In this document: one piece after another, positions 2,705 through 48,990 of the stretch | Layout: each line of letters begins with the position of its first letter | Numbering within the stretch: the first letter of the stretch is position 1 | Origin: Haploplasma modicum ATCC 29102 | GTDB taxonomy: Bacteria > Bacillota_I > Bacilli_A > Acholeplasmatales > Acholeplasmataceae | Length of the DNA stretch: 64,000 nucleotides | Reading direction: 5' to 3' | Assembly: GCF_000687835.1 (NCBI RefSeq) | Contig: NZ_JHYB01000003.1 | Span: forward strand, 62,001 to 126,000 | The notes under the pieces: generated by a model | The model's database searches: none | Told to the model about the DNA's origin: nothing | The model's input: only the letters and a program-made list of their open reading frames with translations | Made by a program: the position numbers and the translations under genes

Positions 2705-4723
2705 TTTATAATTTTCAATAAATTCTTCTAATCTTTTCTCATTTATTGGTTTACTATAATAATATCCTTGTACCATATCACATTTTAACTCTTTTAAAAA
2801 ACTATCTTGTAATAAGGTTTCCACCCCTTCAGTTACAACTAAAGAATCAAGTTTTCTACTAATATTAATAATATCGCCTATTAAAGATACTTTATTACCA
2901 TTAGTTATTCTACTTGTAAATGATTTATCAATTTTGATTATGTCAAATTTTAATTCTTGTAAGTAAATTAAATTTGAGTATCTTTTTCCAAAATCATCTA
3001 ATGCAATTAAAAATCCGATATTTCTTAAATCATTTAATATAATTTCTAATTCTCCTAAATTACTAGCAAAAATTGATTCCGTCACCTCTAAAATTATATT
3101 ATTAAAAAGTAAGTTATTTTTTTTAACAAGTCCTTTAATATCATTAATAAAATTAATATTGTAAAACTGATTAACCGATATATTTATAGATAATTTGAGT
3201 TCACTTTTAAAATTAAGCCTATATCTACTAATAAAATTAAGAGATATATCAATTATTTTTAATCCCAGTTCATATATAAATCGGTTTGATTCAGCAATAC
3301 TTATAAATTCTGCTGGAGCAATACTTCCATATGATTTGCTGTTAAATCTTGCTAAAGCCTCTACTGCAAAAATACTATTATCTCTTAAATATATAATCGG
3401 TTGGTATTCCATATATAAGTTATTTTCCTTACTTTCTATTTCTAAAAGTAATTCATCTTTTATCGTTTGAGTTCTTCTAATTTTATATTCTATTTCTTCT
3501 GTAAAATATATTGTATTATACAACCCATCTAGTTCAAGCGCTAATTCTGAAATTTTAATTGCTTTATTAAGAAGCTCTAGTGAATTAAGTTTTTGATAAT
3601 TAGCAACAATACCTACACCAACACTTATATTTAGTGAAAAATAGTTTGTTAGTTTATCAATAATTTTGTCATTAATTTTATCAACTTCTTCCTTGCTTAA
3701 TAATGCTTTATAGTAAAAGGCAAAACCATTTTCTTGAATATAAAAAAGTCTAAATTTTTCATTTTCAAACATAATCAAGAAATCTCTGATTTCTTTTTTT
3801 ATTTTTTGGACGTTCGTAAAACCATAATCCCCATACTTAATATAGAGGTTTTTCATATTTACTAAAAATAAGGTGCCGTTATTATGTTCCTCAATTTCAT
3901 TTAAAAGAGAGTTTCTGTTAAGTAAGTTTGTTAAACTATCATATTTTATATTATATTCTATCTTGTTATTTAATTCTTTTAGTCTTGTTATATCAAAGAT
4001 CATCCCTTCAATATACTTTATGTTATCATTTTCATCAAAAACAGCTTCAGCATATTCTAATACCCACTTAATCTTATTTTCCTTAGTTATGATTCTATAT
4101 TCTAATTGAAAAACTTCTTTTTCTCTTAACTTGTTTTTCATTATAATTCTTGTTTTTTCTAAGTCTTCTTCATAAATAATATCTGCAAAGCTTTTTTGTT
4201 TATTATTTAATAATTCATTTTCCTTATACCCTGTTAAATTAAAACATCCTTTCGATAAATAAGTCATTGTATAGTCTTTATCGTCTTTTGATCTATATAT
4301 TAAACCTGGAAAATTATTAAAAATTAAGTTTTTATTTCTAATTATTTCAATTACTTCAACTTCTTTTTTTCTAAGGTCTGTTATGTTACTAATAAAAAAA
4401 TAGAAGAGATCTTCTTTTTCATTATAGATTATATAAACATCTAAAAACATATTTAAATCATTCTTACTTTTTGCTTCTAAAGTCATATGATAATTATTTA
4501 TTTTTTTATTATAAAGATCATTCATCTTTGATTTAATCTTAATTAAATCATTATTACTATAAATTTGATTTAGATCTATTTGTTTAATTTCATCTTCGTT
4601 ATAACCAAGCAAATTAATTATATATTTATTTAATTTGATGGTTTCTTTTTGATTATTTCTTATTTTCAATAATCCAATTGGCAGATTATCTAATATATCA
4701 ATTTCATCTGTAATAGTTCTCAT
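2702..4723 (-). CDS. PAS-PAS-(degenerate GGDEF)-EAL c-di-GMP phosphodiesterase
   Basis: This 673-residue sensor protein hydrolyses cyclic di-GMP to pGpG. In order there are two PAS folds (about 5-120 and 130-250, the second with a PAC-like segment), a GGDEF-fold region (about 255-410) starting KYDSLTNLLNRNSLL whose signature is replaced by QENGF, so cyclase activity is not expected, and an EAL domain (about 430-670). The EAL part keeps the expected metal and catalytic residues: EALARF, NISVNQF, EVTES, ALDDFG, KIDKSF, VVTEGVET, VQGYYYSKP. No membrane segment is obvious, so PAS-based cytosolic sensing is likely. The start ATG follows AGAGG. Its start region contains an 11-nt complement to the predicted small RNA at 47386-47583. 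It is convergent with the broken HD-GYP gene. Confidence 0.9.
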   Translation of the reverse strand: MRTITDEIDILDNLPIGLLKIRNNQKETIKLNKYIINLLGYNEDEIKQIDLNQIYSNNDLIKIKSKMNDLYNKKINNYHMTLEAKSKNDLNMFLDVYIIYNEKEDLFYFFISNITDLRKKEVEVIEIIRNKNLIFNNFPGLIYRSKDDKDYTMTYLSKGCFNLTGYKENELLNNKQKSFADIIYEEDLEKTRIIMKNKLREKEVFQLEYRIITKENKIKWVLEYAEAVFDENDNIKYIEGMIFDITRLKELNNKIEYNIKYDSLTNLLNRNSLLNEIEEHNNGTLFLVNMKNLYIKYGDYGFTNVQKIKKEIRDFLIMFENEKFRLFYIQENGFAFYYKALLSKEEVDKINDKIIDKLTNYFSLNISVGVGIVANYQKLNSLELLNKAIKISELALELDGLYNTIYFTEEIEYKIRRTQTIKDELLLEIESKENNLYMEYQPIIYLRDNSIFAVEALARFNSKSYGSIAPAEFISIAESNRFIYELGLKIIDISLNFISRYRLNFKSELKLSINISVNQFYNINFINDIKGLVKKNNLLFNNIILEVTESIFASNLGELEIILNDLRNIGFLIALDDFGKRYSNLIYLQELKFDIIKIDKSFTSRITNGNKVSLIGDIINISRKLDSLVVTEGVETLLQDSFLKELKCDMVQGYYYSKPINEKRLEEFIENYK

Positions 4724-44221: not shown

Positions 44222-47200
44222 ATGATCCAAGTAAAGCATATTAAAAAAGTTACTAGTTTTCTTTTAATTTTAGTTACTGCATTTTTGTTAGTAGCTTGTT
44301 CTAAAAAAGAAAATGTGCCTTACGGTGATATAAAAGGTGACGATTATTTAACTGTAGGAGATGTGAAAATCACAGATAGGGATGTATATGATACATTACG
44401 TAGACAAGGGGCATCCGTATTACCAAAAATGGTTGAAGAAAAATTATTCGAAGGTTATTTAAATAACGCCAAAGAATTATTAAAAGCAACTAACGTAGTA
44501 GAGGGTTCAAAGGAAGAATGGGCTCAAAAGGAATTTGATAATATTGTTAAAAAAGCAATATTCCAAACAGATGATGTTGAAAGCATTGAAAAAATGCCAG
44601 AATTAAATCGTAAGACATTAATCAATAAGTATGTTGATTCATTATATAAAACTGACTTTAATATAGACAGAACAACTTTAGTTCAAGAAATTCAAGCATT
44701 TGTTGCAGATACTTTAGCAGATGAAGATTACGCTAAAGGTTTCTATACAAATGATACATTACTTAAATTATATGTAATTGAAATTCAAAAGTTAATTTAT
44801 GCAAAAGAACAATTAGATAAAAATGTTATTGACGAAGAATCAGACGACTTTGTAAAAGATACAAGTGTTATTTCACATTTTAAAAATAATGTTAAAAAAC
44901 AATTTGATACAAATGTTTTCTACTTCCACTTCATCTCAACAAATGAAGCAAACGCTGCATTTACATTATTAAACTTAAAAAATAATAGTCGTGGACACTG
45001 GTTTGAAATTCCAGATATTAGACTTGTTGCAATATATGATGAATTTAAGGATAACGAAGAACATCAAATTTGGGAAGTTTTAGAAAAAACAAAACTAACT
45101 ACTAAATTTGAACAAACTTCAGACTTAGATGCAACAAAAACAAAAATTAATGAAGAAGATTACAAGAAATTCTATGATGCATATGGTCCATCAGAAACAA
45201 ACTCACAAAAGTTACCAGTTGTTAGTGTATTACAAAAATTCATTGAATTACATAATATTGTAAATACAAAAAAACTAGTTCAAGTTGCTGATGATGTTGA
45301 TTTAATTAATTTAGAATTAAAATATACAAATGGTGTTGTTTACGAAACAGAAAAATCATATGATGATTTAACAAAATTAAATACAACATTTAGAAACTAT
45401 ATCTATGATACATTAACAGAAGAAAAACCATATTCAACATTAAGAACTGTTGGTGAACACCGTTACTTAGCTTTCAAATTAGATAAAAACTATTATGAAC
45501 TTAACTATGTAAGTGAAGAAAAAGATGAAGATGATAATGAAAAATGGGTAACAATTGATGAATTAAAAGAACTTCTAGAAAAACAAAAAGAAGATTTGGA
45601 AGATAATACAAAAGAACCTAAGTTATTAAATGACTTAAGAACAATCGAAGGTGTTGTAAATTCAGCTGGTGAAGTTAACTGGGATGTATTAGATACAAAG
45701 ATGAAAGAAAATATCAAATCATGGACAGAGGAAGTTATTTCTAAAAAACTTACTACTTCTTATGCTTCTACAAAAGTTTCAAACTTATTAAAAGATGCTA
45801 AAGTTGAAATCTATGATAATGTTATTAGATCATTCTATAATCAATCAACAGACAATAAAGCAAAAGGTAAAGCAAAAAATGGTAATGATTTACTAAAATT
45901 AACTGTTAAATTAAATGATGAAAATGTAACAGTTGAAATTACAGTTAATGATTTATACAAAAAACTAGAACAAAATGATGGTTTAGAAGTTGCAATTGAC
46001 TTAGCTTTAAATGAAATTTTATTAGATGAATATAATAAGAAAAATGGTTTATTTAAAGATGATGAAATTAGTTTAAAAGATTTCAAAAAAGAATATAAAG
46101 AATTAATCAACAACTTCTCAAATGACCAATTTGCACAAGCTGGATATCCTGCTTCAATTGGTAGAGAAACATTCTTATTACTATTATTTGGTACAAAAAA
46201 CGTTGATGAAGCAATTGAACAAGGTTACTTATTACCAAAATTAAGAGAATTATTCAGTGAAAAAACTGAAGTTACTCTACCTGGTGTAGATGTAAATTCA
46301 CAATTAGCAAAATTTGCTGCACTACAACATGAAAAATTCATTGGATTCCAAGTAAGTCACTTATTAGTTTACTTTGATCCAAGTGGAACAGGTAGTCCAG
46401 TTGATCCAAAAGAATATTTCGAAGATTTAGAACAAGTTGAAATTGATGAAATCAAACAAGCAATCGTTGATATGTATGCATTAGTTATTGATGAATTAGG
46501 AAATCCTGGTTTAACAACAAGCAAGTTAAAAGCTATTGCTCAAGAATTCCAAGAATCAGCACGTATTGATTTAGGAAATAATGCTAAAACAACATGGCAA
46601 ACATTCCGTAAATACGGATTAAACTTGAAATTTGAAGACTTAGGTAGTGAACTTACAAATACTTCAAACTTACCAACAAACTCATCAACTTTAGATAAAG
46701 TATTCTACAACCGTGCTATTGAATTATTCAATATAATTAAAGCAGATAAAGATTCAGATGATGAAGATTTAGTTGATGGTGGTCTACCATTCTTAGACTT
46801 CGGTGGAAGTTTAAATATCATTCACCAAGATGATCAAAATGTTGCAGATTATTTAAATGAAGACGGAATTATGTCATCATTTGGTTTCCATTTCATTATG
46901 GTTACTTCTGTATCAGAAAAATTATCAGCTGTTTACAAAGAATCAGATGACTATAACGAAGACTACACATTTGAAATTGATGGAACAAAATATAATCCAT
47001 ACAATGAAGATAGTGAAACAATTACTAAATCACAAGTTGATTACTACTTAAAAGGTAAAAAACTAGATGATCCAGCAACATTACCTTCAAAAGTATTACA
47101 AGCATTTACAAAATACTTTGATCCAATTTACAAACTATATCAAGGAAATAGTATGAATCAAGCTATTATGTATAACTATATTAGCAATCAAGGTCTAAAC

Positions 47201-47341
47201 TTACACGGTAAAGAAGCAAGATTTAAATCACTACAAGAAATTAATCAAACAGAATTCCATAACTACTTATTAGGAAATGATAGTAACTATGACGAGTTAT
47301 ATGCAACATGGTTTGAATCATTCAAGTTAGATATTAAATAA
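44222..47341 (+). CDS. Large PrsA/SurA-like foldase lipoprotein
   Basis: 1039 residues. The lipobox LVAC (Cys26) follows a hydrophobic signal, so the mature protein is lipid-anchored outside. A SurA/PrsA-type N-terminal helical part begins YLTVGDVKITDRDVYDTL and continues VLPKMVEEKL; a second similar start is near VTVEITVNDLYKKLE (about 580). A parvulin-like domain is indicated by FIGFQVSHLLVYFD (about 720) and closed by SSFGFHFIMVTSVSEK (about 900). It is three times the size of ordinary PrsA, suggesting two fused or duplicated chaperone units. Likely a foldase for secreted proteins; prolyl isomerase activity unproven. Strong promoter, ribosome binding site and terminator suggest high expression. 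Confidence 0.78.
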   Translation: MIQVKHIKKVTSFLLILVTAFLLVACSKKENVPYGDIKGDDYLTVGDVKITDRDVYDTLRRQGASVLPKMVEEKLFEGYLNNAKELLKATNVVEGSKEEWAQKEFDNIVKKAIFQTDDVESIEKMPELNRKTLINKYVDSLYKTDFNIDRTTLVQEIQAFVADTLADEDYAKGFYTNDTLLKLYVIEIQKLIYAKEQLDKNVIDEESDDFVKDTSVISHFKNNVKKQFDTNVFYFHFISTNEANAAFTLLNLKNNSRGHWFEIPDIRLVAIYDEFKDNEEHQIWEVLEKTKLTTKFEQTSDLDATKTKINEEDYKKFYDAYGPSETNSQKLPVVSVLQKFIELHNIVNTKKLVQVADDVDLINLELKYTNGVVYETEKSYDDLTKLNTTFRNYIYDTLTEEKPYSTLRTVGEHRYLAFKLDKNYYELNYVSEEKDEDDNEKWVTIDELKELLEKQKEDLEDNTKEPKLLNDLRTIEGVVNSAGEVNWDVLDTKMKENIKSWTEEVISKKLTTSYASTKVSNLLKDAKVEIYDNVIRSFYNQSTDNKAKGKAKNGNDLLKLTVKLNDENVTVEITVNDLYKKLEQNDGLEVAIDLALNEILLDEYNKKNGLFKDDEISLKDFKKEYKELINNFSNDQFAQAGYPASIGRETFLLLLFGTKNVDEAIEQGYLLPKLRELFSEKTEVTLPGVDVNSQLAKFAALQHEKFIGFQVSHLLVYFDPSGTGSPVDPKEYFEDLEQVEIDEIKQAIVDMYALVIDELGNPGLTTSKLKAIAQEFQESARIDLGNNAKTTWQTFRKYGLNLKFEDLGSELTNTSNLPTNSSTLDKVFYNRAIELFNIIKADKDSDDEDLVDGGLPFLDFGGSLNIIHQDDQNVADYLNEDGIMSSFGFHFIMVTSVSEKLSAVYKESDDYNEDYTFEIDGTKYNPYNEDSETITKSQVDYYLKGKKLDDPATLPSKVLQAFTKYFDPIYKLYQGNSMNQAIMYNYISNQGLNLHGKEARFKSLQEINQTEFHNYLLGNDSNYDELYATWFESFKLDIK

Positions 47342-47385: not shown

Positions 47386-47415
47386 ATAAAAAAAAACTAG
47401 AACTTAATCTAGTTT
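47386..47415 (-). terminator. Terminator of the predicted small RNA
   Basis: The stem AAACTAG/CTAGTTT with an 8-base loop is followed on the minus strand by TTTTTATTTTAT (47415 down to 47384). Confidence 0.7.
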
Positions 47416-47473
47416 ATAATGATTGAAGGCATAGCCAAAAATCTTTAAATATTATACATAAAATCTAACAATG

Positions 47474-47569
47474 TAAAACTATGAGAACTAAAAGCATTAA
47501 AACCTAAATCCTAAAACTATGAGAACTAAAGCATTAAATCTTTAAATCTTAAAACTAAAACTTAAATCT
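47474..47569. repeat. 38-nt tandem repeat, two good copies and one decayed
   Basis: Copy 1 is 47474-47511 and copy 2 is 47512-47549. Both begin TAAAACTATGAGAACTAAA, continue GCATTAAA and end in TAAATC plus one base. A third, partial copy starts exactly one period later at 47550 (TAAAACTA then AAACTTAAATCT). The repeat lies inside the predicted small RNA. Confidence 0.8.
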
Positions 47570-47589
47570 AAGCTATGCCTTCTACCCAT

Positions 47590-47618
47590 AGTATATAATA
47601 AGATATTAATAATTGCAA
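47590..47618 (-). promoter_or_regulatory. Promoter of the predicted small RNA
   Basis: On the minus strand TTGCAA (47618-47613), a 17-base spacer and TATACT (47595-47590) form a near-consensus sigma-A promoter just after the tpiA terminator. Confidence 0.65.
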
Positions 47619-47629
47619 TACCTTTAATT

Positions 47630-47661
47630 AAAAAAATAAAAGTGGAATAAAATCCACTTTT
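47630..47661 (-). terminator. Terminator of the pgk-tpiA operon
   Basis: The stem AAAAGTGGA/TCCACTTTT (47638-47646 with 47653-47661) is followed by ATTTTTTT on the minus strand. Confidence 0.88.
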
Positions 47662-47671
47662 ACTATGTTTG

Positions 47672-48447: not shown

Positions 48448-48990
48448 CTAAAACATTGGAGGTGTAGAAATCCATAATACTTTAGCATTAGTATTCCCAT
48501 TATTAACAATATAATGTTCTTTGTTTGCCATATAGTAAAAGGTTTCTCCCTTCTTAATTATATATCTTTTTTTATTTAATACAAGTGTTACTTGTCCTTC
48601 TAAAACATAACCGAACTCTTCACCATTGTGTGGATCATCAATTGTTGATTGGCCACCCGCTTCTAAATTAATGATAATTGGCTCCATTTGGTATTTAAGG
48701 GCATTTGGAACAATCCAACTAATTCGGTGTTTTAAATCATCATTTTCTTTTTCAAAAAAATCTTCTTTTTTAAAAACAACATTTATTTCTTGCTCATTAG
48801 CAAAAAACTCATGAATATTTGTTCCTAGTACTTCTAAAAGAGCAAATAATGTTTGAATTGAAGGAGAAGTTAAGTTATTTTCTAACTGTGAAATATAGCC
48901 TTTTGTAAGCTCAAGTCTTGATGCCAACTCATCCTGTGTTAATCCATTACCTAATCTTAAAGCCCTTATTTTTTTACCAATATCAACCAT
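48448..48990 (-). CDS. XRE-cupin transcriptional regulator
   Basis: 180 residues: N-terminal helix-turn-helix (about 7-62, IRALRLGNGLTQDELASRLELTKGYIS in order) and a C-terminal cupin_2 barrel (about 105-175, DDPHNGEEFGYVLEGQVTLVL, GETFYYMANKEHYIVNN). This family often controls polyamine, amino acid or sugar genes by small-molecule binding to the cupin. It sits inside the glycolytic operon, two bases after pgk and 17 before tpiA, so its level is tied to both; it may sense a glycolytic state (inference). Confidence 0.9.
   Translation of the reverse strand: MVDIGKKIRALRLGNGLTQDELASRLELTKGYISQLENNLTSPSIQTLFALLEVLGTNIHEFFANEQEINVVFKKEDFFEKENDDLKHRISWIVPNALKYQMEPIIINLEAGGQSTIDDPHNGEEFGYVLEGQVTLVLNKKRYIIKKGETFYYMANKEHYIVNNGNTNAKVLWISTPPMF

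What the first reader, a model, noticed from the sequence alone, without database searches (positions are those of the whole stretch)
47386..47583. Unannotated small RNA with its own promoter, 11-bp end-closing stem, 38-nt tandem repeats and terminator
The only gene-free stretch above about 290 bp carries a complete minus-strand unit: TTGCAA-17-TATACT, a start near 47583, GAAGGCATAGC at the 5' end and its exact complement near the 3' end, then a hairpin with T run. Inside are two near-identical 38-nt units and a third decayed one. The interior strand has almost no C and little self-pairing, as expected for a displayed single-stranded loop. It fits no RNA family I recognise; 6S RNA is the closest in size and end pairing.
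Basis: partly seen in the sequence, partly recalled or inferred. Interest (0 to 1): 0.75.

Follow-up and report, generated by a model that had tools for sequence, protein, structure and literature searches.

The report
Orphan small RNA gene beside tpiA
Between two genes of an Acholeplasma-like bacterium lies what looks like a one-off small RNA gene that would fold into a long hairpin; no relative of it could be found, so it is probably an ordinary lineage-specific RNA of unknown target rather than a new RNA family.

Summary
The 330-bp gap between tpiA and a convergent 1039-aa ORF carries a minus-strand unit. It has a promoter-like site, an 11-bp perfect inverted repeat starting at the predicted +1, about two 38-nt repeats, and a hairpin with U9. 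The inverted repeat appears in only 3 of 20,000 shuffles. One claim is wrong: the interior is not an open loop. It is predicted to be more paired than shuffles, as a long imperfect rod. The unit is single copy, matches no Rfam family, and is absent at this site in both held same-genus genomes. A covariance model finds no credible homologue in 159 other genomes of the order, so covariation cannot be tested. RNase P, SRP and tmRNA are encoded elsewhere. 6S RNA, CRISPR, type III antitoxin, HutP, MITE and methylase-remnant readings were tested and not supported. Antisense targets are at chance level. Best reading: a lineage-specific orphan small RNA gene with a rod-like transcript. Transcription and function are unproven.

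The parts
47590..47618 (-). promoter-like site TTGCAA-17-TATACT
   Evidence: 9 of 12 matches; not above chance on its own; its position 7 nt before the stem start is read from the sequence
47425..47583 (-). predicted structured RNA body (159 nt), folding as a long imperfect rod
47572..47582 (-). 5' arm of closing stem, GAAGGCATAGC
   Evidence: pair probability 1.0 over the 11 pairs
47425..47435 (-). 3' arm of closing stem, GCTATGCCTTC
47512..47549 (-). 38-nt repeat unit, first copy in RNA order
47474..47511 (-). 38-nt repeat unit, second copy in RNA order
47550..47569 (-). decayed partial repeat unit
   Evidence: array 47474-47557; direct reading
47436..47571 (-). C-poor interior with 7.5-nt periodicity (U3-4 tract then purine tract)
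47386..47415 (-). terminator-like hairpin plus U9 run
   Evidence: -7.7 kcal/mol; I4
47635..47664 (-). tpiA's own terminator, upstream of the unit
   Evidence: 12-pair stem, T run

Best explanation
A lineage-specific (orphan) small RNA gene. RNA polymerase would start at about 47583 on the minus strand, after tpiA's terminator, and make an RNA of about 195 nt. The 11-bp G+C-richer helix ties the 5' end to the region just before the terminator hairpin. The AU/GU-rich interior folds back on itself as an imperfect rod, because its repeating U-tract/purine-tract unit is nearly self-complementary. A 5' end buried in the helix, plus the terminator hairpin, would make the RNA resistant to end-dependent decay. 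The most likely role is a stable regulatory or decoy RNA acting in trans. I lean weakly towards protein binding along the rod or its U-tracts rather than antisense pairing, because no mRNA start region pairs with it better than chance. SHOWN: the sequence anatomy, predicted fold, single-copy status, and absence in the relatives searched. INFERRED: transcription, stability, trans action, partner.
For: The inverted repeat is far beyond chance and unique among noncoding DNA of the readable genome. Predicted +1, stem start, repeat array and U-tract hairpin lie in the right order and spacing on one strand. The unit lies between tpiA's terminator and the convergent gene's terminator. The stem forms with probability 1.0 and the interior is more paired than in 98% of shuffles. 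The + strand unit would lack a terminator. In same-genus G001 and G002 the tpiA/convergent-gene gap has only two terminators and no such unit. Antisense scores over 1101 start regions are no better than with shuffled RNA (max 38.0; shuffles 39.1 +/- 3.4).
Against: No expression data. No homologue, hence no covariation or conservation. The promoter match is at chance level for the region. Interior folding energy alone is not significant (z = -1.1). Hfq, CsrA and TRAP gave no significant tblastn match with single B. subtilis queries, so no partner is identified beyond a generic CspB-like cold-shock protein.
Confidence: 0.6

Rival explanations
1. Non-functional or nearly neutral intergenic DNA: a slippage-expanded AT-rich repeat that happens to sit inside an inverted repeat and between terminators, perhaps transcribed at low level.
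For: Absent from all relatives searched; degenerate 7.5-nt repeat typical of repeat expansion; promoter match at chance; no target above chance.
Against: The 11-bp stem is very unlikely by chance and its start coincides with the predicted +1; a separate U-tract hairpin follows on the same strand.
Confidence: 0.2
2. A MITE-like or other mobile repeat: the 11-bp arms are terminal inverted repeats and the unit jumped into the gap between two convergent terminators.
For: Perfect terminal repeats, and relatives with an apparently empty site.
Against: Single copy in the genome, arms found nowhere else; no target-site duplication flanks the arms (ATGATT / TACCCA, direct reading); no similar element in plasmids or phages or in viral contigs at other spacings.
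Confidence: 0.08
3. A divergent 6S RNA: rod-like RNA that occupies RNA polymerase.
For: Similar length, end pairing and rod shape; no Rfam 6S elsewhere in the genome.
Against: No RF00013 match even at E up to 10; no relative over the 6S cut-off among 61 genomes and no homologue of this element, so it is not an inherited 6S; the predicted rod has only small loops and no large central bubble.
Confidence: 0.04
4. A DNA-level element, for example a repeat array bound by a protein or an extra bidirectional barrier between convergent genes.
For: Strong 7.5-nt periodicity at DNA level and an inverted repeat, between two convergent genes.
Against: Both genes already have their own terminators; directional promoter and U-tract layout fits a transcript; no second such array in the readable genome.
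Confidence: 0.08

Closest known systems
Orphan (species-specific) intergenic small RNAs of bacteria
   Same: Autonomous transcription unit in an intergenic gap, U-tract hairpin, no conservation beyond the species
   Different: Unusually regular U/purine periodic interior and a perfect end-closing stem
6S RNA (RF00013)
   Same: About 190-200 nt, paired ends, rod-like fold
   Different: No covariance-model match, no large central bubble, not inherited in the clade
Type III toxin-antitoxin RNA repeats (ToxI and others)
   Same: Tandem repeats of about 36-40 nt with promoter and terminator
   Different: No toxin gene follows; the next gene is a convergent 1039-aa ORF with no Pfam match; the end-closing stem is not a ToxI feature
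HutP / TRAP NAG-repeat RNA sites
   Same: U-rich RNA with UAG/AAG about every 7 nt in part of the interior, like HutP sites
   Different: No HutP in the genome; TRAP spacing of 5-6 nt not met

Membership tests
6S RNA (RF00013) | Match to the covariance model | tested here: not met
   (E up to 10)
6S RNA (RF00013) | Rod with large central bubble imitating open promoter | tested here: not met
   predicted loops are at most about 4x4
6S RNA (RF00013) | Binds RNA polymerase, templates pRNA | not testable with these tools
   needs experiment
RNase P / SRP / tmRNA (missing housekeeping RNA) | The canonical RNA is otherwise absent from the genome | tested here: not met
   found at C2:245990-246316, C6:7711-7806, C2:203033-203370
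Type III antitoxin RNA | Toxin gene directly downstream on the same strand | tested here: not met
   downstream is a convergent 1039-aa ORF, no Pfam match
CRISPR array / tracrRNA | Repeat-spacer array in the genome | tested here: not met
   no array found in readable contigs; cas genes not searched
MITE | Several copies with shared ends | tested here: not met
MITE | Target-site duplication | tested here: not met
   flanks of the arms differ (direct reading); sites outside the promoter or terminator could not be defined
HutP-bound RNA | HutP protein encoded | tested here: not met
Csr-type sponge RNA | CsrA encoded, many GGA loops | tested here: not met
   no CsrA match by tblastn with the B. 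subtilis sequence; one GGA in the interior
Orphan bacterial small RNA gene | Own promoter and terminator, no ORF | tested here: inconclusive
   layout fits; transcription not tested
Trans-acting antisense small RNA | Pairing to mRNA start regions above chance | tested here: not met
   short-seed targets cannot be excluded

The most novel reading that the evidence does not exclude
First known member of a new kind of structured RNA: an end-closed rod built by repeating a self-complementary U-tract/purine-tract unit about every 7.5 nt, serving as a multivalent binding platform for a U-rich-RNA-binding protein such as a cold-shock protein.
Probability: 0.08. Interest if true: 0.55.

Novelty: new member of a known kind. 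Interest (0 to 1): 0.27.

Why it matters
If transcribed, it is an unannotated small RNA gene in a little-studied wall-less lineage. It apparently arose recently between two terminators and may illustrate how new RNA genes form from expanding repeats. It does not open a known open question, because it has no relatives and no identified partner.

Tried and rejected
(1) Remnant of an EcoRI-type methylase gene. The paired-arm pattern hit one viral contig, inside such a gene, and a 15-nt stretch was shared. The interior and both flanks show no similarity beyond shuffles, and no methylase occurs in the genome. I estimate about 0.1 hits of this pattern by chance, so it is a coincidence.

(2) Homologues by BLASTN in 60 relatives: only short AT-rich matches; the one in same-genus G002 lies across a gene start.

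(3) Covariance model R1 over 160 genomes including its own: one weak hit, which is a terminator hairpin.

(4) Phages and plasmids: phage hits are 39-nt matches to the terminator end only.

(5) Repeat unit as antisense to an ATGAGAACTAAA start region: no such gene start. The best predicted pairing, 17 contiguous pairs over the SD of a membrane-protein gene at C2, is within chance.

(6) HutP because of NAG every 7 nt: no HutP.

(7) Similar inverted repeats or 7.5-nt arrays in the 79% of same-genus G001 that could be fetched: none of this type.

(8) Paper searches gave nothing specific.

Full report
WHERE IT IS. The window lies in a 1.22-Mb, 10-contig genome of about 27.5% G+C whose nearest named relatives are Acholeplasma and Acholeplasmataceae. 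Four small contigs (5.9 kb in all) read as N, so 'whole genome' below means the readable part. The unit lies in a 330-bp gap, the only gap of 280 bp or more in the window. On one side is tpiA (minus strand; Pfam TIM) and on the other a convergent 1039-aa ORF with no Pfam match. Each neighbour has its own terminator-like hairpin.

WHAT IS THERE. The promoter-like site alone is no better than chance in such AT-rich DNA, but its predicted start falls on the first base of the stem. The inverted repeat is clearly beyond chance: 3 of 20,000 shuffles contain one of that length and G+C, and no other noncoding one of that quality exists in the genome.

The interior is not predicted to be an open loop. 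The ensemble leaves 34% of it unpaired against 41 +/- 3% in shuffled interiors, and the minimum-energy fold is one long rod of 58 pairs. The pairs are weak A-U and G-U ones: fold energy of the interior alone is not significant (z = -1.1), and the z of -5.3 of the whole comes mostly from the closing stem. The interior also has a strong 7.5-nt periodicity (0 of 1000 shuffles reach it; no other stretch of the genome does), which remains when one 38-nt unit is removed. It reads as U3-4 tracts alternating with purine tracts, a nearly self-complementary pattern when G-U pairs are allowed. This would explain why direct repeats can pair with each other across the tip of the rod.

COMPARISON WITH RELATIVES. 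In the two held genomes of the same genus, tpiA and the convergent gene are separated only by two terminators; the unit is missing. A covariance model of the unit finds nothing credible in 159 other genomes of the order; the single weak hit is a terminator hairpin. BLASTN in relatives, phages and plasmids gives only short AT-rich matches. No arm, repeat or full copy occurs elsewhere in the genome. Covariation in the stem therefore cannot be tested.

WHAT IT IS NOT. No Rfam family matches at gathering or relaxed thresholds. RNase P, SRP RNA and tmRNA are encoded elsewhere. No 6S RNA is found over the cut-off in 61 genomes including this one, and the lack of inherited homologues speaks against a divergent 6S. 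No CRISPR array was found, no toxin gene follows, and no HutP is encoded. Hfq, CsrA and TRAP gave no significant match with single B. subtilis queries, while a CspB-like protein is present. An apparent match to an EcoRI-type methylase gene in a viral contig does not survive comparison of the interiors.

HOW IT MOST LIKELY WORKS. Best reading (0.6): an orphan small RNA gene whose RNA of about 195 nt has its 5' end closed into a helix and its interior folded as a rod, giving a stable RNA that acts in trans. Predicted pairing to 1101 mRNA start regions is at chance, so I lean weakly to a protein partner. B. subtilis CspB is known to prefer T/U-rich stretches of about 6-7 nt (own knowledge), which would fit the repeat spacing, but nothing here tests that. 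The chief rival is a non-functional expanded repeat (0.2).

VERDICT. A real and statistically unusual sequence arrangement, probably an ordinary lineage-specific small RNA gene; new as a member, not as a kind. Interest is modest because there are no relatives, no transcript data and no identified partner.

Noticed in passing
window 48448-48990 (-): An XRE-type regulator with a cupin domain lies between pgk and tpiA, its reading frame overlapping the long form of the tpiA ORF.
   Followed up: partly
G000:C3:23650-23878 (outside the window): A 229-bp noncoding unit with 10-bp ends GGGGCTGTAA/TTACAGCCCC, looking like an insertion-sequence remnant or MITE.
   Followed up: no
G000:C5:36515-36651 and G001:296732-296878: Noncoding inverted TGTGGATAAC/GTTATCCACA boxes in both same-genus genomes, resembling DnaA boxes near an origin.
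   Followed up: no
window 44222-47341 (+): 1039-aa predicted lipoprotein with no Pfam match; the same-genus genomes have a similar convergent gene next to tpiA.
   Followed up: partly
L200 (IMGVR_UViG_3300044558_000093) 2905-3999: EcoRI-type methylase gene with an internal 11-bp perfect inverted repeat identical to the window's closing stem, judged a coincidence.
   Followed up: yes
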